Positions 7,396-27,671 of a DNA stretch of 27,671 nt are shown here, piece by piece. The stretch is from a virus, in IMG/VR virus record IMGVR_UViG_3300027899_000055, positions 1-27,671 of that record; one strand, written 5' to 3'. Under the pieces are notes generated by a model. That model had not been told where the DNA came from. It made no database searches and worked only from the letters and a program-made list of their open reading frames with translations. The translations under genes were made by a program, and so were the position numbers. How positions within the stretch are numbered: position 1 is the first letter of the stretch; every line of letters starts with the position of its first letter.

Positions 7396-10300
7396 TTAGA
7401 AACTTGGAATAAATCCAGTAGTTTCAGAGCTTAATTGACCTCCAACTCTAGTGATTGTAATTCTATTGATAAACTTATGGATTCCTCTTGGGAAATCTAC
7501 TCGGATATCGATAATTGCAGTGTTTGCACTAATTACCTCATTTGTGTTGTTTGAAGTATCAAAGATGATTTCATAAGAAGATAATCCTCTTGCTGAAACT
7601 ACTGCATCTAGGTAGTTTTGAACAATCGTCTTAACTCTAAGTCTAGTGATCTCATCATTAAAATCAAAAAGGAAGTTGAAAAGAATCTTTTCAATATCTC
7701 TTTCGATAGTCGACAAGTTATCTCTAACGTGTGCATTATTTAGTGCAGAATTAATACGTTGGTATGCAGTATTGTTTGAAAACAATAAGATTCCAAATCC
7801 TCTACGCTTAACGATTAAGTTGTGTCCAACTGGCTCTAAATAATCTCTGTCCTCTTGAGTTAAGTCATACTCGATTCCAACTACTTCAGGATCATTGATT
7901 GCTCCACGTTTTCCTCCAGCTACAATTAAGAATGGTGTTCCGTTTTTGAATTTTCTAACATATAGGTTAGAGATATATCCAGAAGGTGGAACTGAAATAT
8001 TCTTACTTCCACTTCTAACAATTAGATTAGGAAAAGAGTAGTGAGCATAAGATGACAATGGAACTCCATTAACGTCCTCCTCTGCAAACTTAAACAAGTA
8101 GCTAGGATTTAGTGAAAGATCTCCACCTTGTGAAATATACTCAGCAGATACTAGTTTATTAGTAGTATTAATAAAGCTAGGGTCAACTGATTTCTCAAAT
8201 TGCTGAATAGAAGGTGAATTTACGATTGCCATAGCTTGTCCGTGTAGTGCAGCAATTTTAGCTAGGTGATATTTAGAAGATCCTGAAATTGTACCAGCAT
8301 AACTATCTACTACATATCTAAAATCTACTAATTCTCCAGTAGCAAGAGCTTGAGGAATAGAGGTATCAGTAAAAAGATAGTTTAATATTCCAGAAGTTCC
8401 TTCAAGACGATCTGCTGTTCCGTTAGGAAGTGCACTATCCTTAATCTTAAATCCTTTGATATATTGTCCCTTAAGAGTATTTGCAAAGTTATAGATTCCT
8501 TTGTATACTTGTAAAGTATTTCCAGTAACGTCTAGGCCAAGAACTTCTTCTACACTTGGAGACATGGTAGTCACAGTATACTCTAATCTAGATGGACTTA
8601 CACTAGTATCTATTCTTGAAGTTATTGAGATAATCTTTAGGAGACGATCACGACCAGCTGAAGTTCTTGCCTTAATATACTGGTTAACTTTGATGAACTC
8701 ATCAACTAGTGCACGGTTAGCAGTATCAATTCCAAGAATCAACTTGTTCGGCTGCTGCACTTGATAGTCTACAAAATCAGTAGTCAAGTCAAACGTATGT
8801 TTGAAATCTGCACCAGAAGAAAGAGCAACTTTCATATAGCCATTACTATCAGTTCCAGTATAGAATCCATTATTATTTCCCCAATCGTCTTGATTCAATA
8901 GAGTAGTGTCCATGTACAACAAAACTTTAATATATGGAATATCAACTGGCGTTGCACCAGCTGAAGTTACCACAAAATTATCAACAAACTTAAGATAGAA
9001 TGTATTTGTTCCGTCAGTAACTTCATCGCCAGTTTTTAAGAATCCACCAGTATATGCACGGTATATCTTACTTCCAGCAAGTGCAGCAATATAATTTGTT
9101 TCAAGTGTTGGAATAACTTCATAACACTCTCCTTGAGCAACTGGGACTGTTCCAAAATTATCTTGATATCCATTAAAGAAAGATGTTTCAGTAAGATCCT
9201 TATCTCTTGGACTTCCCTGAATAAGAAAAATCAATTCAGCATCTGCTGGTTTACTATAACTTAGTGTATTAATTAGCGGAGTCCAATCAACTACGGTTAC
9301 TCCATCTGTATCATATCCACCATCATCTGCTCTATAAATATCAAGAGAATTAAGTTCGTCATATCCATGACCTACAATATCTACACGATGTGTAGTTACA
9401 TCCTGATCAGTAAAAGTAGACTCAGATAAATCCATTAAGTCAAGTTTTTCAACATCAAGTGAACATAGAATACCAGTAGTTGGAAATGATCTATTTACTA
9501 ATCTATCAATTGAAACAGTTAATCCTCGTTGATCTTTAAAATCAGGAATCAAGCAACCAACTGTTCTATTAATAACTTTAACTTCTCTAAGTGCAAAAAA
9601 GTCAGCAGACTTTTCTGATTTTAAACCAGACTCATCAAAGAATTGTTTGTAGATAGGGTCCTTTGCAAGTTTTAAATAATTAGACCATTCACCATTAAGT
9701 ATGATTACCTCTACAAAATAATCTGAGATAAAATCATCTCTATGAAGAAATACTGGAAATTCAACATCTGTTCCTCCAATAGTTGAATACCACTCTCTTG
9801 CAGTTACATCAAATCCTCTAACATCAGCTTTTCTTACCCAAGTAGTAACATTATTGTTTCCTAAGTTAGCAAATGATAAGATTTTATTTGCAGCAATAGT
9901 TGCTTGACCAAATCCTCCAGGATTAGTTACAAAATCGTCACCTAGAGCTAAATTCTTAGCACGATTTAATTGAGCTGAATCAGCAAACCATAATCTACGA
10001 CGATTGAAGAATTCAACAATCGGATAATCCATAGGTAACGATAAATCGTTATTTGATGATGCTTCAGTATTAAATGTGGTGAAAAATGATTTGTCAGTAT
10101 TCAAAGTAGGATCCGTTTCTGAATCCAATGGAATAACGTTAAGTGCAAACACTGGACCCTCTCTAAGAGCCACTTCAATTGTTCTATGAAAGAAACTTCC
10201 AGCTTTTTCTAGTTTTGGATCAATTTCTCCGTATACTGCTCTAAGCGTTCTAACATCATTTATTAATACAACAGTGTTGAACGGACCAACTCGGCTAGAC

Positions 10301-10416
10301 CCTACAATAAGTCTTCCTGTAGTAAGAGGTAATACTACGTTTTCGCTCTGGTCAATCTCGACTGTGTAAACTCCACTTGACTTATAATTGTTCAAGTTGA
10401 TCCTTTGTTCGGCCAT
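7396..10416 (-). CDS. 18: Contractile tail sheath protein (T4 gp18-like)
   Basis: This protein polymerises around the tail tube and contracts during DNA injection. The 1006-residue protein begins with a sheath-like N-terminal region (SSGVYTVEIDQSENV, then LPLTTGRLIVGSSRVGPFN and ALREGPVFALNVIP before residue 100). It ends with the conserved sheath C-terminal domain: an Arg-rich helix (DEITRLRVKTIVQNYLDAVV) and the strand-rich SANTAIIDIRVDFPRGIHKFINRITI. Sheath proteins such as T4 gp18 (659 residues) carry variable inserted outer domains between these parts; here the middle (about 110-800) is unusually large. It is the only gene on its strand between 1 and 22 kb, with a candidate late promoter upstream and a two-way terminator at its end. 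The start has no Shine-Dalgarno. Confidence 0.9.
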   Translation of the reverse strand: MAEQRINLNNYKSSGVYTVEIDQSENVVLPLTTGRLIVGSSRVGPFNTVVLINDVRTLRAVYGEIDPKLEKAGSFFHRTIEVALREGPVFALNVIPLDSETDPTLNTDKSFFTTFNTEASSNNDLSLPMDYPIVEFFNRRRLWFADSAQLNRAKNLALGDDFVTNPGGFGQATIAANKILSFANLGNNNVTTWVRKADVRGFDVTAREWYSTIGGTDVEFPVFLHRDDFISDYFVEVIILNGEWSNYLKLAKDPIYKQFFDESGLKSEKSADFFALREVKVINRTVGCLIPDFKDQRGLTVSIDRLVNRSFPTTGILCSLDVEKLDLMDLSESTFTDQDVTTHRVDIVGHGYDELNSLDIYRADDGGYDTDGVTVVDWTPLINTLSYSKPADAELIFLIQGSPRDKDLTETSFFNGYQDNFGTVPVAQGECYEVIPTLETNYIAALAGSKIYRAYTGGFLKTGDEVTDGTNTFYLKFVDNFVVTSAGATPVDIPYIKVLLYMDTTLLNQDDWGNNNGFYTGTDSNGYMKVALSSGADFKHTFDLTTDFVDYQVQQPNKLILGIDTANRALVDEFIKVNQYIKARTSAGRDRLLKIISITSRIDTSVSPSRLEYTVTTMSPSVEEVLGLDVTGNTLQVYKGIYNFANTLKGQYIKGFKIKDSALPNGTADRLEGTSGILNYLFTDTSIPQALATGELVDFRYVVDSYAGTISGSSKYHLAKIAALHGQAMAIVNSPSIQQFEKSVDPSFINTTNKLVSAEYISQGGDLSLNPSYLFKFAEEDVNGVPLSSYAHYSFPNLIVRSGSKNISVPPSGYISNLYVRKFKNGTPFLIVAGGKRGAINDPEVVGIEYDLTQEDRDYLEPVGHNLIVKRRGFGILLFSNNTAYQRINSALNNAHVRDNLSTIERDIEKILFNFLFDFNDEITRLRVKTIVQNYLDAVVSARGLSSYEIIFDTSNNTNEVISANTAIIDIRVDFPRGIHKFINRITITRVGGQLSSETTGFIPSF

Positions 10417-11013: not shown

Positions 11014-11241
11014 ATGAATACCAATCAATCCGGTGGAGGACTTCCTCCAAATGTTAACCTAGCAGATGCTCCATATATTGAATGTGAAAAGTGTCAATGT
11101 CTAGTGTTTGATGAAAAAATAATGATTAAGAAAATCTCTAAATTTATGACAGGCGGAACACAAGATTCAATTGTTCCTCTACCTGTTATCAGTTGCTCAG
11201 ATTGTGGACACATTAACGAAATGTTTAAACCGAAAGTATGA
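11014..11241 (+). CDS. Small zinc-ribbon-like protein
   Basis: This 75-residue protein has two cysteine pairs, C24-x-x-C27 (with an extra C29) and C61-x-x-C64 followed by Gly-His, separated by a strand-rich stretch. This is the spacing of a zinc ribbon. Residues 1-18 are Gly/Pro/Asn-rich and probably disordered. It lies between the dUTPase and the polymerase fragment and overlaps the latter's start by four bases (ATGA), so the two are translationally coupled. A DNA- or protein-binding accessory of replication is a reasonable guess; no family-specific motif fixes the role. Confidence 0.72.
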   Translation: MNTNQSGGGLPPNVNLADAPYIECEKCQCLVFDEKIMIKKISKFMTGGTQDSIVPLPVISCSDCGHINEMFKPKV

Positions 11242-12671
11242 TAATTGGATCTGAAATTCTTGATGAAAATGTTTTAACAATTTCATATTACAATAGTGAT
11301 GGAAAAATCGATTTCATTAAAAAGAGATTAGTTGACCACGAACTATTCAATTGGGTAGAGTCAACAACTCCGACAAATACCAAAAATTGGGATAATAAGT
11401 ACGTTAAGAAGAGTAAATCTATTGGTAAATACATCAATCAGTTTAGAATTCAGGAGTTAATCCAAGAAAAATTAACTGCTGCTGAACTCGATGCAATTTA
11501 CAGTTTCGATAATCTACCTAAGAAAACCTATCTAGATATCGAGATCAAGCTAATAGACGACTCATTTCCAGATCCTGAAAGAGCAAGAATGCCAGTTGGC
11601 CTAATTTCTTTCTGTAATGAGGATAACATTACCTACATTCTCTCAATCTTTAATTCAGAAGAGCAACCCGATGGATTATCTGCTGACGATATTGTACGAA
11701 TGGAAAAGGAGGTTAACGAGTATTTTAGAAAAACCGTTCCACTTAGTCCTCAAGACAAATGGTTATTTGAGCAAGAATTTAAAATAAAGTATAAATTTTT
11801 TAAGACAGAGGAAGAGTTACTCGAGTTTTATTTCCATAATCTAGTTCCAAAGTTTTCTTTTGTTACTGGTTGGAATGTAACGGATTTCGACTGGAAATAT
11901 CTAATGAATCGCTCTAAGAATGTTAAAGTCGATTCTACTGCAAAACTTCCATCTACTTCACTAATATCAAAAAATAGAATTCCAGCACATCTTGGAGTTC
12001 TCGATTATATGCAAGTTTTTGAAAAATTAAAACCATATAAAGTGGTTGAAAATTACAAGCTTGACTATATTGCTGGAATTGTACTCGGAGTAGCTAAATT
12101 AAAACATCCGTATCCTACATTCCTTTCATTTCAGAAGGATACTTATCTCTTTACTCTCTATAACGTAGTCGACGTTATTCTTGTTAAATTGATTGAAGAT
12201 AAACTTTCACTACTTGATGTTGCTTACTCCATTGCAAACGTTGCACAGGTTGAAGTAAACAAAGTATTTAGTCCAGTGTATATTGCTGAGATCTTAATGT
12301 GCCGTGAATTCCTAAATAAGGGACAACGTATGATGAAACTCCCTTGGGGAGAACAAAATACTGAAGATGGTACTTATGAAGGAGCCTATGTTAAGAAGCC
12401 GATTCCCGGCCACTATAATTATATTGCTTGCTACGATTTCTCGTCAATGTATCCAAATATTCAGATCCAGTTCAATATCTCACCGGACACATATCTTGGA
12501 AAGATAGGTAAAGTTAAAGTAAAGGGCAATGAGATTCATACAAAGAATGATACTTACTTTTCTAATGATTCAGATTCAGTTGCTCGAACTATCTTAACTA
12601 GATTATATGATGAGCGTATCAAGACTCAAGGAGAGATCAAAACTTTAAAAAATACAAAGAAGAATGGCTAA
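11238..12671 (+). CDS. 43: DNA polymerase family B, N-terminal part only (exonuclease and palm motif A)
   Basis: This is the N-terminal portion of a T4 gp43-type replicative polymerase. The proofreading exonuclease is complete: Exo I D100-x-E102 in TYLDIEIK, Exo II N213/D218 in TGWNVTDFD, Exo III Y308-x3-D312 in YNVVD. Palm motif A is present at D400 in CYDFSSMYPN. The frame ends at residue 477, about where T4 gp43 (898 residues) enters the fingers domain. Fingers motif B (Lys...Asn-Ser-x-Tyr-Gly), catalytic motif C (Asp-Thr-Asp) and the thumb are missing. The next reading frame starts eight bases before this stop and is unrelated, and no other gene in the window supplies the missing part. 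The protein alone cannot be a working polymerase; it must pair with a second subunit encoded elsewhere or act only as an exonuclease. It overlaps its upstream neighbour by four bases. Confidence 0.92.
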   Translation: MIIGSEILDENVLTISYYNSDGKIDFIKKRLVDHELFNWVESTTPTNTKNWDNKYVKKSKSIGKYINQFRIQELIQEKLTAAELDAIYSFDNLPKKTYLDIEIKLIDDSFPDPERARMPVGLISFCNEDNITYILSIFNSEEQPDGLSADDIVRMEKEVNEYFRKTVPLSPQDKWLFEQEFKIKYKFFKTEEELLEFYFHNLVPKFSFVTGWNVTDFDWKYLMNRSKNVKVDSTAKLPSTSLISKNRIPAHLGVLDYMQVFEKLKPYKVVENYKLDYIAGIVLGVAKLKHPYPTFLSFQKDTYLFTLYNVVDVILVKLIEDKLSLLDVAYSIANVAQVEVNKVFSPVYIAEILMCREFLNKGQRMMKLPWGEQNTEDGTYEGAYVKKPIPGHYNYIACYDFSSMYPNIQIQFNISPDTYLGKIGKVKVKGNEIHTKNDTYFSNDSDSVARTILTRLYDERIKTQGEIKTLKNTKKNG

Positions 12672-12957
12672 GCCAATATTTATTGTAGGGTTTCCAATCT
12701 CTGCAAATCCAGAGGCAATACAAAGAACCTACCTAGATCTTAATGAAAAACTAGGTGATGATTATCATATATTAACGTACCGAACTTCTAAAATTGAGGA
12801 TGTTGCGTTTAATGTTCTTAATGCAGAGAATGCAAGTGATATTGAACTATCTGAACTATTTGAAACAACTAGAGAGCAAATCACTCAACTACTTAATGAG
12901 ATTGCTCTTCTTGAATTAACACAAGTTGAAAATATATTACCTAAAAATAACCCGTAA
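12664..12957 (+). CDS. Unknown small protein directly after the polymerase fragment
   Basis: This 97-residue protein is not recognised. It begins with a hydrophobic strand (PIFIVGFP) followed by a helix (NPEAIQRTYLDLNEKLG) and a second strand (YHILTYR), suggesting a small alpha/beta fold. The C-terminal third is an acidic helix (TTREQITQLLNEIALLELTQVE) that may form a coiled coil. Its ATG overlaps the polymerase stop by eight bases, so translation is probably coupled. It contains none of the missing polymerase motifs, so it is not the second polymerase half, but its position makes it a candidate partner. Confidence 0.72.
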   Translation: MAKPIFIVGFPISANPEAIQRTYLDLNEKLGDDYHILTYRTSKIEDVAFNVLNAENASDIELSELFETTREQITQLLNEIALLELTQVENILPKNNP

Positions 12958-12960
12958 ACT

Positions 12961-13239
12961 ATGGAAACATCTGAAAAATTTATCAATTGGCTAGAAGGAT
13001 ACCTCGATGCATGTAAAAACAAATTAACTATCCCACAAGTCAAAGAGATCAGAAAAAAAATAACTGAGTATCATGTGGCTCGTGAATCTGAGCTATTGCC
13101 TCTTTGGGATTCAACCTATCCTGGGGCAGTTTCTTTAAAAGGTGCATATAATTCTTTTAATAATACTGCAGTTAATGAAGAATATCTTAAAGAAATTGAA
13201 AGAAATAGCAAAGCTTCCACTATGGAAGAACTTTCCTAA
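12961..13239 (+). CDS. Unknown small helical protein
   Basis: This 92-residue protein is not recognised. Most of it is predicted helical: an N-terminal amphipathic stretch (FINWLEGYLDACKNKL) followed by a Lys/Glu-rich helix (IPQVKEIRKKITEYHVARE). The C-terminal part is polar. Small proteins with a similar FINWL-GYLDA opening are common in T4-like phages, which I recall only in a general way. It sits 3 bases after the preceding stop and 16 bases before the next start, inside the replication operon. Confidence 0.68.
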   Translation: METSEKFINWLEGYLDACKNKLTIPQVKEIRKKITEYHVARESELLPLWDSTYPGAVSLKGAYNSFNNTAVNEEYLKEIERNSKASTMEELS

Positions 13240-13255
13240 AAAAAATATAATCGAA

Positions 13256-13870
13256 ATGAATACTGAAAAGTTAATCTCACTAAAAGAAAATTTTACCGGT
13301 CAGAAATTTCAGTGGGTTAAAACCGACCGTCCTGAACTTTTGGGAAAAGTTGTTAAGTGTAGAGATATTGAACCTACTAATGATGGTAGATTTATTGCAA
13401 TATTTGATGACCAGTCCAAGGTAGATACTACCAAACTGAATCTAAATCTCATAATGATTCATGGAGATATGCCGCCTTTGTCTAAAGAAGAGGTAGAGTC
13501 AATCAATAAGCCTAGAGGAACTAAGGCTCCTTCGCCAGCTGCACCTGCCAGGACAGAACAGCCATTTATTGCAGGTGGACAACCTTCTGTAAATACTTCT
13601 GCGAATAAACCAAACATGTTTGAAATGTTTAATACTGAGGAAACTAAACTTGGATTAACGATCAACGTAAAGTTACCTGATCGTAAATTGCTAAAGCTAA
13701 TGTATTCTAGTGCAGAGGACAAAGATAAATTCCTTTCTCAACTTGCTGAATATTTACAAACTATGATTAACAAGCAAGTTATAAAAGATTCAGTTAGTGC
13801 TATTCTTGAACCCAACCAAGTTCCAGAAAAACCTAAGAAATCAACTATAAATCTAAAGGAAGTACAATGA
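13256..13870 (+). CDS. Unknown two-domain protein with Pro/Ala-rich linker
   Basis: This 204-residue protein is not recognised. Residues 1-70 look like a small beta-rich domain (KFQWVKTDRPELLGKVVKCRDI...GRFIAIFDDQSKVD). Residues 84-120 are a Pro/Ala/Ser/Asn-rich linker. Residues 121-185 form a second domain with two strands (LGLTINVKLPDRKLLKLMY) and a helix (DKDKFLSQLAEYLQTMINK). The frame is open back to 13142, but that part overlaps the previous gene out of frame; the ATG at 13256 follows an A/T-rich leader and starts a plausible protein, so I chose it. It overlaps the next gene by four bases. Two domains on a flexible linker would suit a scaffold between replication proteins, which is inference. 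Confidence 0.72.
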   Translation: MNTEKLISLKENFTGQKFQWVKTDRPELLGKVVKCRDIEPTNDGRFIAIFDDQSKVDTTKLNLNLIMIHGDMPPLSKEEVESINKPRGTKAPSPAAPARTEQPFIAGGQPSVNTSANKPNMFEMFNTEETKLGLTINVKLPDRKLLKLMYSSAEDKDKFLSQLAEYLQTMINKQVIKDSVSAILEPNQVPEKPKKSTINLKEVQ

Positions 13871-14427
13871 ACTTAGATATCTCAAAATTTAATAAAAAAG
13901 AGGAGTATACTGATGGAAAATATTCAGTGTACTCCTTTTCTGGAGAAAACCGTAATTTTCGTAGAATTGTGTGTGCTGCTGAATCAATATGTATTCTTCC
14001 ATTTGATTTAACTGATAAGAATAACATCAGAAATATCTACTTATCAAAATACAAAGATTATCTTACTAATAAGTTTGATCATACTTGCATCACTGATACT
14101 TTTAATAAAGATGAATTCGATTCATATTATGCAGCAATCGAAGACTGCTTGAAACATGATATGGGTATTCAAAATATCGATGTAAACGATACCTATTATC
14201 TAGGTAAAATCAAACATAGTGTTCCTTTTAGCAAAGAGTACAGGTGTTATGGAGTTAACTTAACAAAATACTGCAGCGATCCTTCTGGGTATACTAATCC
14301 AGTTCAACACCCTGATCCAAAATCAATTATTGAAAAAATAAAATTCAATAAGTTAATCAAAGGAGATATTTCAGATTCTCTTTCCCTTTCATGTTCACTT
14401 CTATTACTTTCTTATTTTTCAGAGTAA
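13867..14427 (+). CDS. Unknown protein, possibly a catalytically degenerate Nudix-fold protein
   Basis: This 186-residue protein is not firmly recognised. Its middle has the rhythm of a Nudix domain: strands near 30-46 (FRRIVCAAESICILPFDL), then a helix ending in HDMGI (residues about 157-161 of the pattern AAIEDCLKHDMGI) followed by a loop and strands (TYYLGKIKHS, YRCYGVNLT), where Nudix proteins have REUxEExGU and then YLG-type strands. The metal-binding Nudix residues are not conserved (Asp-Cys...His-Asp in place of Arg-Glu...Glu-Glu), so if the fold is right the enzyme is probably inactive. It has several cysteines without a clear metal-site spacing. It overlaps the preceding gene by four bases and is followed by a 46-base gap before uvsX. 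The fold suggestion is weak. Confidence 0.65.
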   Translation: MNLDISKFNKKEEYTDGKYSVYSFSGENRNFRRIVCAAESICILPFDLTDKNNIRNIYLSKYKDYLTNKFDHTCITDTFNKDEFDSYYAAIEDCLKHDMGIQNIDVNDTYYLGKIKHSVPFSKEYRCYGVNLTKYCSDPSGYTNPVQHPDPKSIIEKIKFNKLIKGDISDSLSLSCSLLLLSYFSE

Positions 14428-21104: not shown

Positions 21105-22172
21105 ATGAAAATCTGCCTAACTATGATCGTTAAAAACGAGAGCAAAATAATCTCTCGTCTAATTGATAGCGTACTTCCAATTATCGATTCTTGGTGTATT
21201 GTCGATACTGGAAGTACTGATGATACTATTGAAATTATAAAGAGTAAGTTGTCACATCTCCCTGGAGAAGTTGTTAGTTCTCCTTGGGTAAACTTTGGGT
21301 ATAATCGATCCCAAGTAGTAGAATTATCTAGAAAATGGGGCGATTGGTCACTTACTCTAGATGCAGACATGATCCTAGTAGATAATGGATTTAATAAAAG
21401 TGAACTAGACTCAACGGTTGCTGGATACTATCTATTTCAGAAATCTCCTTCAATCAGTTATTCAAATATGCGATTTCTAAATACTAAGTTTACTTGGAAA
21501 TCTATTGGTGTTACTCACGAATATTATTCAGTTGCTGAACCTAACTCAGATCTTAAAACAATCTATTCACTTGAGATAAATGATATCGGTGATGGCGGTG
21601 CCAAGGCCGATAAGTTTGAAAGAGATATTCGTCTACTTGTTGATGATCTTAAAGTTGATCCAAATAACTCTAGATCACATTTCTATCTAGCAGAGTCTTA
21701 TTACAATACACAACAGTTTGCTCTTGCTAGAAAATATTATAGATCATGTGTTGACTTGACTACTTGGGATCAGGAAAGATTCTTTGCTAAATATAAAATA
21801 GGTCTTGCCTCAATCGCTCTTGTGGAGTCAGATGAAGTTATCTCAGCAGATCTCATGCTTGCTTGGCTAGATCGTCCTCTTCGAGCTGAACCTATCTTCA
21901 GATTAGCTCAATATTTCAAAAGCAAAAATTGGGAAAAAGCTTACGCCCTGCTAAAATTATGTGTAAGTATACCCTATCCACATGGTGAAGCTCTATTTGT
22001 ATTTCCAGATAATTATGGGGCTCATCCGCTAGACGAATTATCACTTGCTTCATGGTACACTGGAAGATTTCATGAGTTTGAAAGCTGCATACTTTCTCTT
22101 AAGACCTATCCAGAATACTACGAAAAACATAAAGATCGTCTTGAAAGCAATCTAAAGTATCTTAAAAAATAA
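21105..22172 (+). CDS. Family 2-like glycosyltransferase with TPR-like repeats
   Basis: This protein is predicted to transfer a sugar from a nucleotide donor to an unknown acceptor. The 355-residue protein opens with the GT-A signature of family 2 enzymes: MKICLTMIVKNES at 1-13, V33-DTGSTDDT at 33-41, and the metal-binding D86-A-D88 in LTLDADMI. After about residue 160 it becomes helical, with a TPR-like motif (SRSHFYLAESYYNTQQFALARKYYRSCVDL, about 189-218) and further helical pairs. There is no signal peptide or membrane helix, so it acts in the cytoplasm. It follows gp46 by one base, but its 3' end overlaps the convergent adhesin gene by 11 bases, with no terminator between. Possible acceptors are virion fibres, DNA bases or host surface molecules; the sequence does not decide. 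Confidence 0.85.
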   Translation: MKICLTMIVKNESKIISRLIDSVLPIIDSWCIVDTGSTDDTIEIIKSKLSHLPGEVVSSPWVNFGYNRSQVVELSRKWGDWSLTLDADMILVDNGFNKSELDSTVAGYYLFQKSPSISYSNMRFLNTKFTWKSIGVTHEYYSVAEPNSDLKTIYSLEINDIGDGGAKADKFERDIRLLVDDLKVDPNNSRSHFYLAESYYNTQQFALARKYYRSCVDLTTWDQERFFAKYKIGLASIALVESDEVISADLMLAWLDRPLRAEPIFRLAQYFKSKNWEKAYALLKLCVSIPYPHGEALFVFPDNYGAHPLDELSLASWYTGRFHEFESCILSLKTYPEYYEKHKDRLESNLKYLKK

Positions 22173-22536
22173 AAGAATAGGCAACTGTCCCTGGTCGAGT
22201 ACCGACATTCCAGTTTAATGTTTCAGCTCCTACTGGAGTAGTACTAACTGTGCCTCCAAATGTCCAGATAGTTTGGCCACTGTTTTGCGATGAATCAATT
22301 CGCGTACCGTTTACATAAATCAGAGATTGTGTCGCACCTGGATCTAGCGTCCAGATAGCCCTAGTTGCTGCACCAGATGATATTATTGTAGGTCTTGCGG
22401 TAGTCGCTAAACCTCCTGTGATGCTTACCGCTGCTCTAGTTCGATATGCAACAAGTTCTTGTAGTGTAATGTTAAATGTTCCTGCGGTAGAACATATTAA
22501 GTTATTGCAATCCCAACCAGCTGTTCCTGTAAAAGT
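22162..22536 (-). other. C-terminal module shared by both solenoid proteins (copy in the 680-residue protein)
   Basis: Residues 557-680 align by eye with the last 121 residues of the upstream neighbour (24208-24573). Shared points are TFTGT-x-GW-x-C, L-x-C-S, ITLQ, A-x-W-x-L, ATQS-x-x-YV, IDSS, TIW-(T/S)-F and a final SF-x-F. The module may be a receptor-binding, capping or trimerisation domain; the role is inferred from its position at the end of both proteins. Confidence 0.7.
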
Positions 22537-24204
22537 TGTTGCTCCATTGAGAGTCAAAATACTTGCAATTGTCAATACCTGATTTAACGTGATAGTTACG
22601 CCTACTGACGTTGTGACATTTCCCCAGGTCATGCCACTAGTTGCCATTATTATATTTGCCGCTGGGAATAATGTTCCACTTGTTGCATTAACTGTACCGC
22701 CGCCTGCAGTGTATGTAATATTTGATCCATTTCCAGCTTTTGTTAAAGAAGTTATCGTATGAGTTTGGCCAGTATTTGGCGAAATTACCAAGTTGTTGCT
22801 TATCGAGCCTGCTGTCCAATTGCCAGTGTAATAAAATACAACGGTTGCTGTTCCAAATAGACCACCACCCTGTAGAGATGTACCTGCGATAAGCATTCTA
22901 CTACCATTGGAAGTATTTACCGTGAGATTCCCACCACCACTATTATTTGTTGTACCGCTTACGTGAAAATCTGAGGTAAGTGTCCAAGTAGAAGCATATC
23001 TACAGTCTACACTATGCCATATAATAAATTTGGTAATACTTGGACTTGTATTAAATGTGTTGTTTGTTCTTGCCCATACTGTACCTGTGGAAAGAGGTGT
23101 AGGTCCTCCATTCGTATCTAAATAAGTTACAGTGGTACTAAATATATCAGCAAATGTACCGCCCAGACCAGTAACGGTTAATTGACATCCAGGGAATGGA
23201 TTCATTGTAAGAGTTATACCAATCATTTGATTACCACTATTTATAGTGCAATTTTGTGAGCCATCAAATATAATTGATAAGTTTATGGAGGTAATTGTTG
23301 CAACGGTTCCTCGCATTCTAACTACACTTCCGCCGTTGTGTACCCACGTAACACCAAACGAACTAAATTGAGAAAAAACCCCGGTACAAATAAGGTCGTC
23401 ATTTGTTGTAATCGTACTATTCGGAGTGCTAATTGCCGGACTTTGCACGTTTCTCCATATAGCCCCATTTGAAGTTATTGTTGTAGTATATATGGTTAGA
23501 TTAACTAAACTAACGTCTCCAGCAGTTCTTACAAGAGTTCCACCAAATTTATAAAGTGAACCTGTGTAACTACCGGTCGCATTAAAAACTACATTATTTT
23601 CAGTATTTATAGTATTGTTTAATGTAGCAGCGCCTACTGAAATAAAATTAAGAGTAGCAGTCCCTGCTAAAGCGTTACCTCCGGCATGAGTAAAATTACC
23701 TTCTATAAATAAGTTATCCCCGTTTCCGGCAGAAGTTCTATTTATTCTAAATACAAAATTACCATTGGTTCCTACAAAATTAAGTATATTTGTATCTCTA
23801 ACCAGTGTAATCGTAATCGTTACTCCGCCTAAAGCAGTATTCATAATCAGGTTAGGGATCCTAAAACCAGTTAAAATATCAAAGGTTGAATTAGCAGCAA
23901 TAGTGAAACTTCCGGCACCAGTTATCTGAGCGGTAACCATGCCTGCGCCAACTGTTACGTTGCCCCAAACTTGTAGAGCGTTTGTCATAGCTAGATTTCC
24001 AGAAAAGCTTGTTAGATTAATACTTTTACAAAGAGCTGCAGAAGTTACGGTAGCTGTACCTGCACCCGAATTAGAAGTAAAAAATACATCATCTGTCGCA
24101 TTTGGAACAGCTACAATTCCTGTTGTTCCTGTTGGAGTATCACTCCAATTTGTGTTGCTATTCCAATTACCTGTGCCGCCAGGTCTCCAATATCTTAGTG
24201 CCAT
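22162..24204 (-). CDS. Beta-solenoid tail fibre or adhesin protein (680 residues)
   Basis: This is a predicted virion surface protein for host binding. The 680 residues are dominated by Gly, Thr, Asn, Ser and Val in short alternating strands and turns, as in parallel beta-helices. The N-terminus (RYWRPGGTGNWNSNTNW, then ATDDVFFTSNSG around 37-48) has the Trp/Gly pattern seen at the start of many phage and bacterial surface proteins. Residues 557-680 form a C-terminal module (TFTGTAGWDCNNLICS...ATQSLIYVNGTRIDSSQ...TIWTFGG) shared with the neighbouring large protein. It has no signal peptide or membrane anchor. It starts three bases after that neighbour's stop, so they form one minus-strand unit. 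Its 3' end overlaps the glycosyltransferase gene by 11 bases. Receptor and position in the virion are unknown. Confidence 0.8.
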   Translation of the reverse strand: MALRYWRPGGTGNWNSNTNWSDTPTGTTGIVAVPNATDDVFFTSNSGAGTATVTSAALCKSINLTSFSGNLAMTNALQVWGNVTVGAGMVTAQITGAGSFTIAANSTFDILTGFRIPNLIMNTALGGVTITITLVRDTNILNFVGTNGNFVFRINRTSAGNGDNLFIEGNFTHAGGNALAGTATLNFISVGAATLNNTINTENNVVFNATGSYTGSLYKFGGTLVRTAGDVSLVNLTIYTTTITSNGAIWRNVQSPAISTPNSTITTNDDLICTGVFSQFSSFGVTWVHNGGSVVRMRGTVATITSINLSIIFDGSQNCTINSGNQMIGITLTMNPFPGCQLTVTGLGGTFADIFSTTVTYLDTNGGPTPLSTGTVWARTNNTFNTSPSITKFIIWHSVDCRYASTWTLTSDFHVSGTTNNSGGGNLTVNTSNGSRMLIAGTSLQGGGLFGTATVVFYYTGNWTAGSISNNLVISPNTGQTHTITSLTKAGNGSNITYTAGGGTVNATSGTLFPAANIIMATSGMTWGNVTTSVGVTITLNQVLTIASILTLNGATTFTGTAGWDCNNLICSTAGTFNITLQELVAYRTRAAVSITGGLATTARPTIISSGAATRAIWTLDPGATQSLIYVNGTRIDSSQNSGQTIWTFGGTVSTTPVGAETLNWNVGTRPGTVAYSFIF

Positions 24205-24207
24205 ACC

Positions 24208-27200
24208 TTAACAGACAAATGTAAATGATTTTGTTAACTGCGGAGATCCTGCTCCCCAGTTTATAGTTGACGCATCTATCCCATTAGTTCCTCCCTGAAA
24301 ACTCCAGATTGTCATGCCTTCTGAACTGTCGATTGCAATTGCGCTTACATAAACCATAGATTGTGTTGCAGGAGTATTAGTTAGATTCCATTTAGCTAAA
24401 ACATATGGCGCTGTCAAATCACTAGATCTCATAAGTATTCTTAGTGCATTTGTTCCCAACATAATTACATTAGTTGTAGTAGTATATGTAATTGCTTGCT
24501 GTAGTGTAATAATAGAAGAAGGAGCAGAACACGTAAGAGTTCCACACGTCCAGCCTGATGTTCCTGTAAATGTCGCGTTACCCGATAACGCAAGTGTCCC
24601 TGTTATAGAGAGCGGAGAAGTTATTGCAATATTTCCACTGACTGGTACCGTCATATTAAAGAAGTTTTCGCCATTTGTATCAAATATAGTCGAAGTTGTT
24701 CCTGAAACAATGAGTGTTGATGTACCCCCATTTAATGTAACTGCTGAGTTAATAGTGACAGTTGTTCCTGAAACTACTGTCAAGGTAATTGCTCCCATGT
24801 TTAGTGTTCCGGACGTTGCTATAAAAGTTCTTGTAGCTAACCCCCATGTGATATTTGAGGTTAACGTAACTGCGCCAGCGGTATCAATGATTACATTATT
24901 GTTAAGAGCAGATGCAGATCCGCCCCAATTTCCTGTGCCAGTGAATCTTATAGTCGATGTACCAGAAACACCACCAGATGTCTGATTATTAGTAAGATTA
25001 CCTCGTACATTAAAATTAAATAAACCATTAATAATTAATGATGAACCTGATGCAGCTGTGCCTAATGTAACATTATTGAAATTAGATGCAGATGATAATG
25101 TTAATATGGAATTATATGCCATAGATAAATTATTCCAAACAGTATTTAGTAAATCTAGAGTGAATAGATTACCTAAAGGAATGCTTAATGTTGATCCAGT
25201 AGTAGTCAGAGTACCTACATTTGTATATTTTAGAGTTTTTGTATTTCCAAAAATAACCGTTGTTCCAATTACTATTGTACCACTTGGAGAATCAAATTCA
25301 AGATCAATTCCTATTGCACCAGTTGAAGAATGCGACCATGTTCCAGAACCGTTCATTTTAAGTTTGGCAGTTCCAGATAGCAATGCAGAATTTCCATGTG
25401 TTAGATTTCTTGTAATGTTTACAAGAAATCCTACACCATTTATAGCGTGAACGCTTCCGCCAAGACCGCTTGGAATAACTAAATCTCTGACAGTCGCGCT
25501 GCTTTCTAAAGTAAGTGTACTGTTCAAACCAATATTGAGATCGTTCCATACAAAACTGCCTGCGTTGAGTGTTGATGTTCCCTGAATATAATAATAACCA
25601 GTTGCTGTAAATGTACCAGCCGACGTACACAATGTTCGTTTACCTCCGCCAACAACAATATTGGTTGCGGTAATTGCACCGGTTGGGCTGTCTATAATTA
25701 CATCAATTTGATAATTGCCAATCGTGCCAGCTCCTCCACTCCAGGTACCGGTACCATTTAAAATTATAGTTGTAGTACCAGTAAGAAAACAATAAGTAGT
25801 TCCAATTGATAATGATCCACCTACATAAAGATTGTACAATCCATTTATTGTACAATTACCATATGTTGCTGTTCCGTTTGCTATAAGATTTCCACTAATC
25901 GTAGTATTTTGAGTTAATGTTATTGTGTAATAAATACCGGAACTATTAGCTGCAGCAATTGTAAGATTATTTAGAGTTGCTGAGCCCATAGTTAATGTAC
26001 AATTTCCAACAGTTAATGTACCAGTATGTGTAAATGTACCTAATACTCTAAAGGTTTTATTGTCTTGGCCAAAAGTTCCAACCAGAGAAAATACCCAGTT
26101 TACTGCTGAATATGTTCCAGTAATATCTAGATTTATACAAACATATGAATTCCCAGTAATTGTTCCGGTTCCAGCCAAGATTATTTTAGATGTACCACTA
26201 ATATTGTTATAAGAAGCTTGCCCTACAAATAGATTTCCTGAAACATATAAATGTCCAGGACCATTTAAGATCCCTTGACCATACAAGGCTAAGCCGAAAT
26301 TTCCTGTACTAAATGTTCCATTAATATATAGGTCGGCCGAAAGTACTACTGTATATCCAGAGTTTCCACCGCCGCTGTCTGGGCGTATTGATAAATTATT
26401 CCATACACTAGCTCCCAGAGTTAATGTAGAGTTAGTAAGAAATAATGTGGAACTAGTAACTGTAAATACTCCACCAACGTTAGTATATGTCAATGTTTTG
26501 CCATTGCCAAAACATACTGACCCGGAAACTGTAAAGTTTCCTGTTTTATCGATGGTTAAGTTATTTCCAACTTGTCCTAGACCTGACCATATTGTTGTAG
26601 AAGAACCTAATAAAGTTATATTGCTAGTTCCCTGCACATTGTTAGTCATCGTCAAGTTCTGGTTTACATTTAATGGACCACCGTTGATATTTTGTGCAGT
26701 AGCAAATGTACTAGCTGATGTGAATGAACCATTCACAGTTAAATTGTCATTTATTGTAACTGTAGTTACCGCGTTTGCAGGATTAGCTATTATTACTGAT
26801 GTTGGCCATGGAATACTGTTTGATGTAATATTTGCGGATGCCGTTATTCTTAAATCAGACGATCCAGTAAATGCAATACCTGATGTAATAGTAAGAGTAC
26901 CTCCATTGATACCTAGTTGATTTGCTAGATTTAATGTTCCTGCGGTTAGTGTAAAAGTACTGAGAGAGCAGTTAAGTCCTACTGTAGTAGTTGTAGCAGT
27001 ATTGACCACAATAGGAAAGAAATGCGTTCCGGTAATAGTTCCAGTGCCGTTCATTTCAACAACTACTGAACCGGAAAATGTTCCATTTTGGGTTAAATTT
27101 CCACCAACATACATTCGTCCAGCGCCTGACCAGGTATTGGTTCCGTTTGGAGTAATAAAACTGCCTGTTAAATATAAATCAGTAGGCACTGATAAGGCAC

Positions 27201-27671
27201 CAAACGCCGCCATTGTTAAGTTATTAATAGTTTGACCTCCTAAACTCAATACAGTACCTGAAAAGGTTATTGTTGAGCCTGTTGCAGAAATTGTCCCAGC
27301 TGTCCTTACAAATGATCCCGTTACGCCAACCGATCCTGTAATTGTTCTGGTAAATCCTGGAGAATTAATAGTTAAACCGTTTATGTAACCGGTTCCGCTC
27401 CATGTACCTGCACCTGTAAACACAAATGCGGTTGTTCCGGTTTGCTGTCCAGCAACACTGCAGTCTCCAGTTACATAAACTGTGCTTCCATTTATCGTAA
27501 CATTTAAACCAGGATTAGTCCAGGTAGAAACATAAAAATCGCCTGTGATTGTTATTGTTCCACCGCTGGCACCTGTGTCATACCTAAACGGTCTGTCCCA
27601 TGGTTTACCATTAGTTGTTATTGTAAGCAAAGGGTAGGCGATAGCGGTTAATCCGCCAACGCCAGTAATAT
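24208..27671 (-). CDS. Large repetitive beta-solenoid tail fibre or adhesin, 5' partial
   Basis: This is a predicted surface fibre of more than 1150 residues. The frame stays open to the window edge; the first start-like codon (TTG at 27630) is not used as a start because in-frame coding sequence precedes it (...ITGVGGLTAIAYPLL). The sequence is a series of strands separated by Gly/Asn turns. Similar blocks recur, each with a G-T-(T/S)-x-I-x-(L/F)-x-G-(T/S)-G-(T/N)-W-like core, an I-D-S-P-(T/S)-G segment, a TYTNVG-like strand and a V-W-N-(N/D)-L-(S/N)-I segment. The core of the last blocks falls near 26590, 26165, 25745, 25335 and 24930, a period of about 135-142 residues. The C-terminal 121 residues match the end of the downstream protein. 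It probably forms a long shaft with a distal module. Confidence 0.8.
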   Translation of the reverse strand, partial: ITGVGGLTAIAYPLLTITTNGKPWDRPFRYDTGASGGTITITGDFYVSTWTNPGLNVTINGSTVYVTGDCSVAGQQTGTTAFVFTGAGTWSGTGYINGLTINSPGFTRTITGSVGVTGSFVRTAGTISATGSTITFSGTVLSLGGQTINNLTMAAFGALSVPTDLYLTGSFITPNGTNTWSGAGRMYVGGNLTQNGTFSGSVVVEMNGTGTITGTHFFPIVVNTATTTTVGLNCSLSTFTLTAGTLNLANQLGINGGTLTITSGIAFTGSSDLRITASANITSNSIPWPTSVIIANPANAVTTVTINDNLTVNGSFTSASTFATAQNINGGPLNVNQNLTMTNNVQGTSNITLLGSSTTIWSGLGQVGNNLTIDKTGNFTVSGSVCFGNGKTLTYTNVGGVFTVTSSTLFLTNSTLTLGASVWNNLSIRPDSGGGNSGYTVVLSADLYINGTFSTGNFGLALYGQGILNGPGHLYVSGNLFVGQASYNNISGTSKIILAGTGTITGNSYVCINLDITGTYSAVNWVFSLVGTFGQDNKTFRVLGTFTHTGTLTVGNCTLTMGSATLNNLTIAAANSSGIYYTITLTQNTTISGNLIANGTATYGNCTINGLYNLYVGGSLSIGTTYCFLTGTTTIILNGTGTWSGGAGTIGNYQIDVIIDSPTGAITATNIVVGGGKRTLCTSAGTFTATGYYYIQGTSTLNAGSFVWNDLNIGLNSTLTLESSATVRDLVIPSGLGGSVHAINGVGFLVNITRNLTHGNSALLSGTAKLKMNGSGTWSHSSTGAIGIDLEFDSPSGTIVIGTTVIFGNTKTLKYTNVGTLTTTGSTLSIPLGNLFTLDLLNTVWNNLSMAYNSILTLSSASNFNNVTLGTAASGSSLIINGLFNFNVRGNLTNNQTSGGVSGTSTIRFTGTGNWGGSASALNNNVIIDTAGAVTLTSNITWGLATRTFIATSGTLNMGAITLTVVSGTTVTINSAVTLNGGTSTLIVSGTTSTIFDTNGENFFNMTVPVSGNIAITSPLSITGTLALSGNATFTGTSGWTCGTLTCSAPSSIITLQQAITYTTTTNVIMLGTNALRILMRSSDLTAPYVLAKWNLTNTPATQSMVYVSAIAIDSSEGMTIWSFQGGTNGIDASTINWGAGSPQLTKSFTFVC
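24573..26640 (-). repeat. Five tandem protein-level repeats of about 135-142 residues
   Basis: Within the large solenoid protein, G-T-G-x-W-type cores recur near 26590, 26165, 25745, 25335 and 24930, with intervals of roughly 425, 420, 410 and 405 bases. Related but less regular units lie further upstream (near 27040, 27140 and 27410). The repeats are visible at protein level; nucleotide identity between units is low, so they are old or fast-diverging. Boundaries are approximate. Confidence 0.65.

What the first reader, a model, noticed from the sequence alone, without database searches (positions are those of the whole stretch)
11238..12671. Family B DNA polymerase ends at the palm-fingers boundary: a probable split polymerase
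The sequence shows complete exonuclease motifs (D100/E102, N213/D218, Y308/D312) and palm motif A (D400), then a stop at residue 477, near the first fingers helix. Motif B, motif C and the thumb are missing, and no other gene in the window contains them. The following frame overlaps by eight bases and is unrelated, so this does not look like a simple frameshift. Split gp43 genes are known in some Aeromonas T4-like phages, and a separated exonuclease and polymerase were described for Rhodothermus phage RM378. A cut between motif A and the fingers divides the catalytic aspartates between two polypeptides, so the halves must reassemble to work.
Basis: partly seen in the sequence, partly recalled or inferred. 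Interest (0 to 1): 0.75.

Follow-up and report, generated by a model that had tools for sequence, protein, structure and literature searches.

The report
Phage replicase split at fingers tip
The window holds the front half of a virus's DNA-copying enzyme; in all related viruses examined that have enough sequence, the back half is a separate gene, usually 38-67 thousand bases away, so the enzyme almost certainly works as two proteins that must find each other.

Summary
ORF 11238-12671 (477 aa) is the N-terminal half of a T4-type family B DNA polymerase (PolB): N-domain, exonuclease, palm motif A and the first fingers helix. It is not a truncation. All 78 related IMG/VR loci found stop at the same point. 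Large relatives encode the missing half (motif B NSxYG, motif C DTDS, thumb) as a stand-alone gene on the same strand 38-67 kb downstream. Circularly permuted ~271-kb genomes hold exactly one copy of each half. PolA and PolC profiles found nothing in seven such records. Both halves have intact catalytic residues, are under strong purifying selection and diverge in step (Mantel r 0.97). No intein or intron marks the break. The cut lies at the fingers tip (T4 gp43 residues ~493-513), between its two long helices. The same site is broken in Lak and other Mahaphages, PAU, MA9V-1, henriette 12B8 and Aeromonas phage 44RR. One ancient split in the large-phage clade is not rejected; a single origin for all is rejected (AU p 8e-6). 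Best reading: an obligate two-subunit replicase assembled non-covalently. Splits are known; the age, spread and distance are new. The window is a fragment, so its own C-half is not seen.

The parts
11238..12671 (+). PolB N-half: gp43-like N-domain, 3'-5' exonuclease, palm motif A, first fingers helix; stop TAA 12669-12671
   Evidence: (RB69 gp43, E 3e-33, RB69 112-487); AF2 model aligns to RB69 4-499, Z 27.6
11535..11543 (+). Exo I motif D100-I-E102
   Evidence: invariant
11874..11891 (+). Exo II motif N213-D218
   Evidence: invariant
12159..12173 (+). Exo III motif Y308...D312
   Evidence: invariant
12435..12455 (+). Palm motif A DFSSMYP (D400)
12579..12665 (+). First long fingers helix (predicted 448-476, low confidence in the isolated half), where the polypeptide ends

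Best explanation
The ORF is the N-terminal subunit of a replicative family B DNA polymerase that is genetically split at the solvent-exposed tip of the fingers domain. The second subunit (second fingers helix with motif B, palm motif C, thumb) is encoded by a separate gene, which in relatives lies 38-67 kb downstream on the same strand and overlaps a primase-like gene. The two proteins are translated separately and associate without a peptide bond: the two fingers helices pack as an antiparallel pair and the palm forms from both chains, bringing the motif A and motif C aspartates together into one active site. Shown here: the break, its conservation, the complementary gene in relatives, selection on both halves. 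Inferred: physical assembly, activity, and that the window's own genome carries the C-half.
For: All 78 N-half loci end at the same place. The PF00136 C-half was found 38-67 kb downstream on the same strand in 16 large contigs, and in a 254-kb contig of a Bacteroidetes MAG, 38 kb apart. 44 of 45 C-half loci show an in-frame stop shortly upstream; the other is at a contig edge. Four ~271-kb records, permuted relative to each other, hold one N and one C with the same ~43-kb spacing. No PolA or Pol III alpha match in seven of the largest records. The halves tile RB69 gp43: N 4-499, C 546-893. Motifs B and C invariant. dN/dS about 0.05 for both where estimable. Divergence of the halves correlates, Mantel r 0.97. 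Folded alone, each half is confident away from the interface, but the palm/fingers parts have pLDDT mostly <50, as expected if they need the partner. No Rfam intron and no intein sequence at the break. Precedent: the split gp43 of phage 25 copurifies and is active (PMC2988022).
Against: The window is a 27.7-kb fragment, so its own C-half is not seen, and the closest long relative (L043, 85% identity) also ends before reaching it. Low pLDDT in isolated halves may partly reflect shallow alignments (16-19 sequences). No complex could be modelled and I know of no biochemistry for this clade.
Confidence: 0.88

Rival explanations
1. The two halves are rejoined before acting, by RNA trans-splicing or by protein trans-splicing, giving one polypeptide.
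For: Split inteins do occur in PolB of LR756500 and Lak phages, but at motif C; a split PolB with a split intein is reported for phage MIJ3 (PMC6892783), and trans-splicing of N. equitans PolB is known (cited in PMC4104785).
Against: At the fingers break the N-half ends within a few residues of the conserved helix and the C-half starts ~22 residues before motif B, leaving no room for intein halves. No Rfam intron near either end. Spacing and strand vary widely between lineages.
Confidence: 0.05
2. The N-half acts mainly alone, as a stand-alone 3'-5' exonuclease, and the C-half is non-replicative.
For: The N-domain plus exonuclease folds confidently by itself (residues 1-330).
Against: Motif A, palm residues and the first fingers helix are conserved like the exonuclease motifs. 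The C-half keeps motifs B and C invariant. No PolA, PolC or second PolB found in near-complete relatives. The halves co-diverge.
Confidence: 0.06
3. Frameshift, assembly error or decaying pseudogene.
For: A single truncated gene looks like this at first sight.
Against: Same stop in 78 independent contigs from many samples; 32 TAA and 2 TAG among 34 stops checked; strong purifying selection; a dedicated start codon for the C-half tens of kb away.
Confidence: 0.01

Closest known systems
Split gp43 (43A/43B) of Aeromonas phages 44RR and 25
   Same: T4-type PolB broken into two cistrons at the same fingers-tip position (T4 ~510); phage 25 halves copurify and are active (PMC2988022)
   Different: 44RR halves are ~50 bp apart in one operon; here they are 38-67 kb apart. 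Separate origin: one clade of all split forms is rejected, p 8e-6
PolB of Lak phages and other Mahaphages (LR756500/501/502/504, LR745206)
   Same: Same fingers-tip break; large phages; same PolB clade
   Different: Halves often on opposite strands and over 100 kb apart; LR756500 and Lak C-halves are broken again by a split intein at motif C. The split is not mentioned in PMC7162821
Sphingomonas phage PAU (gp105/gp110) and Chryseobacterium phage MA9V-1 (ORF135/ORF138)
   Same: Same break, same clade
   Different: Only 2-3 kb apart with a few genes between; annotated as two separate polymerases (PMC10537231)
MIJ3 / Nanoarchaeum equitans split PolB with split intein
   Same: PolB encoded in two pieces
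   Different: Those pieces carry intein halves; none is present here at the break
Rhodothermus phage RM378 separate exonuclease and polymerase
   Same: PolB functions on two polypeptides
   Different: Here the exonuclease stays with the palm; the cut is in the fingers

Membership tests
T4-type family B DNA polymerase | Exo I-III and palm motif A with catalytic carboxylates | tested here: met
T4-type family B DNA polymerase | Motif B (NSxYG), motif C (DTDS) and thumb encoded by the genome | tested here: inconclusive
   Absent from the window fragment; present as a separate gene in relatives
T4-type family B DNA polymerase | gp43 fold | tested here: met
   N-half model to RB69 gp43 Z 27.6; C-half of a relative Z 21
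Aeromonas-type split gp43 (43A/43B) | Break at the fingers tip | tested here: met
Aeromonas-type split gp43 (43A/43B) | Adjacent cistrons separated by a short untranslated insert or homing endonuclease | tested here: not met
   The next genes in the window are not the C-half; relatives have 38-67 kb between halves
Aeromonas-type split gp43 (43A/43B) | Common origin of the split | tested here: not met
   AU p 8e-6 against all split forms as one clade
Split-intein PolB | Intein N-part at the end of the N-half and C-part at the start of the C-half | tested here: not met
   sequences end and start with fingers helices
Two-subunit polymerase | Physical association and joint activity of the halves | not testable with these tools
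   Needs co-expression or a complex model

The most novel reading that the evidence does not exclude
The replicative polymerase of a broad clade of large phages, reaching some of the largest phages known (Lak and other Mahaphages), became an obligate heterodimer once, early, by a break at the fingers tip, and has stayed so while its halves moved from neighbours to opposite sides and strands of the genome.
Probability: 0.6. Interest if true: 0.72.

Novelty: new variant of a known kind. Interest (0 to 1): 0.62.

Why it matters
A replicative DNA polymerase whose two catalytic aspartates lie on different proteins is rare and usually treated as an accident of mobile elements. Here it appears to be the stable normal state of a large phage group, without intein ligation and with the genes far apart, so the phage must balance two transcripts and assemble the enzyme. 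Recurrence at one spot marks the fingers tip as a natural break point of PolB, directly testable by co-expression and useful for designing split polymerases. It also corrects annotation: each half is currently listed as a whole polymerase.

Tried and rejected
Frameshift or assembly error: rejected by 78 concordant loci. Second complete polymerase elsewhere: PF00136 gives only the two halves in near-complete records, and the PolA and Pol III alpha profiles give nothing. Intron or intein at the break: no Rfam match, no intein sequence. One origin for every split phage PolB: rejected. Common promoter for both genes: a TAAAC-N-GTATAA pattern seen by eye before C-halves occurs twice in the window, not before the N-half operon; not pursued. 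A sliding-clamp identity for the ORF upstream of the C-half in G034, PAU and MA9V-1 found no Pfam or PHROG support, only weak mutual similarity. Literature searches found no description of a split PolB in this clade in the open library; subscription papers are not covered. The AU test of 44RR plus henriette did not finish.

Full report
OBSERVATION. The window is a 27,671-base virus record. ORF 11238-12671 (+) gives 477 aa. Pfam finds the PolB exonuclease domain and only positions 35-144 of the 453-position DNA_pol_B profile. No other PF00136 match lies in the window.

NOT A TRUNCATION. A scan of IMG/VR with this protein gave 78 loci; each stops at the equivalent point, from close (85% identity) to distant (36%) relatives. 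Of 34 stop codons checked, 32 are TAA and 2 TAG.

THE MISSING HALF. PF00136 was searched in 34 of the longer records. Every record gave the N-half, and 17 also gave a match to the rest of the profile. Extracted, these proteins start at an ATG about 22 residues before the motif B core NSxYG in the window's clade and run through YTDTDS and the thumb, 477-572 aa in the main clade. In 16 of the 17 both halves are on the same strand with the C-half 38-67 kb downstream. Record G034 is the exception: its halves are 0.8 kb apart, with one ORF between. Four records of 270.1-271.3 kb are permuted relative to each other, yet all give a spacing of about 43 kb when read as circles (arithmetic), so they are near-complete and hold exactly one of each half. 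A separate scan with the C-half gave 55 loci. In 44 of 45 with upstream DNA an in-frame stop closes the frame before the start, at most 52 codons away; the other lies at a contig edge. A contig in a Bacteroidetes MAG shows the same arrangement, 38 kb apart. The window itself ends before its own C-half could appear; that it has one is inference.

WHERE THE CUT IS. Aligning 27 polymerases puts the break at T4 gp43 residues ~493-513 in most rows, between motif A (D408) and motif B (N561), in the loop joining the two long fingers helices. The N-half model matches RB69 gp43 4-499 (Z 27.6). The C-half of a relative matches RB69 546-893 (Z about 21; sequence profile RB69 558-792). So the two pieces tile the enzyme with only the tip loop missing.

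FUNCTIONAL SIGNS. All catalytic residues are invariant in both halves. dN is 0.03-0.15 while dS is about 0.6 to saturated. Pairwise identities of N and C halves correlate across 21 genomes (Mantel r 0.97, 0 of 2000 permutations). No PolA or Pol III alpha match appears in seven of the largest records. Folded alone, the N-half is confident over residues 1-330, but its palm and fingers part has pLDDT mostly below 50; the C-half's first 50 residues and parts of its palm are likewise poor. This fits parts that need each other, although the alignments are shallow.

WIDER DISTRIBUTION. The same break exists in public phages: PAU gp105/gp110, MA9V-1 ORF135/ORF138, henriette 12B8 (two genes around an ORF with a weak HNH match), 44RR 43/43B, and in all seven Mahaphage-type genomes tested, where the halves can be on opposite strands and over 100 kb apart. 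T4, Klebsiella phage P545, cyanophage Syn30, two marine AG-345 viruses and Flavobacterium phage MaF61 are intact. A maximum-likelihood tree gives a T4/cyanophage group, intact except 44RR and henriette, and a second group of 19 split forms plus MaF61, whose long branch is not placed. Holding the 19 together is not rejected (p 0.56); holding all 21 split forms together is rejected (p 8e-6). So the break arose more than once at one spot, and one old break probably characterises the large-phage clade. Hosts, where stated or inferred, are mostly Bacteroidota (PMC7162821), which is the best guess for the window too.

HOW IT LIKELY WORKS. Two messages, two proteins. The N-half carries proofreading, motif A and one fingers helix; the C-half carries the second fingers helix with motif B, motif C and the thumb. 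They should dock through the palm sheet and the fingers hairpin to rebuild the active site. Precedent: phage 25 gp43A/gp43B copurify and are active (PMC2988022). Ligation is unlikely: no intein or intron at the break. In the main clade the C-half opens an operon and overlaps a primase-like gene, while the N-half sits in a UvsX-gp41-gp47-gp46 block, so expression is presumably co-ordinated in time rather than by one transcript.

KNOWN VERSUS NEW. Split phage PolBs are known for Aeromonas phages, MIJ3 (with a split intein, PMC6892783) and Jug phages, where endonuclease sequences interrupt the gene (PMC12363816). I found no report of a split PolB as the fixed state of this clade; the huge-phage paper does not mention it (PMC7162821), and the MA9V-1 paper lists the halves as two polymerases (PMC10537231). 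This is a new variant of a known kind: older, wider and more distantly separated.

Noticed in passing
L214 (G041:C1:58079-58414 region): A close relative's C-half carries a complete mini-intein directly after the DTDS catalytic motif, in a polymerase already split at the fingers.
   Followed up: partly
L248, L246, L247 (LR756500, Lak-A2, Lak-B6): The C-half is broken again at DTDS by a split intein, with an endonuclease-like ORF between the pieces in LR756500 and Lak-B6, so the enzyme is encoded in three genes.
   Followed up: partly
L123:3365-4129, L185:6024-6839, L182:5684-6559, L248 24-797 of the reverse complement: A ~255-290 aa clamp-like ORF lies just upstream of the C-half in four lineages; weak mutual similarity only, no family match.
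   Followed up: partly
L131:6001-7434, residues 373-478: C-halves of the window's clade extend ~100 aa beyond the end of RB69 gp43, where other members end in a clamp-binding-like LF tail.
   Followed up: no
L117 2164-2922 and L120 2478-3242 (reverse complement), L119 5563-7179: Genes next to the C-half include a PhoH-like ATPase, divergently transcribed, and in G007 a chaperonin-like protein (by eye).
   Followed up: no
window 22162-24204 (-) and 24208-27669 (-): Two very large minus-strand ORFs (680 aa without a PHROG match, and 1153 aa not searched) and a 1006-aa ORF with a weak tail-sheath match at 7396-10416.
   Followed up: no
window 12664-14427: Four conserved ORFs of unknown function between the N-half and UvsX; in G034 this place holds the clamp-like ORF and the C-half.
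   Followed up: partly
window 21105-22172: A glycosyltransferase family 2 gene with TPR-like repeats next to the replication genes.
   Followed up: no
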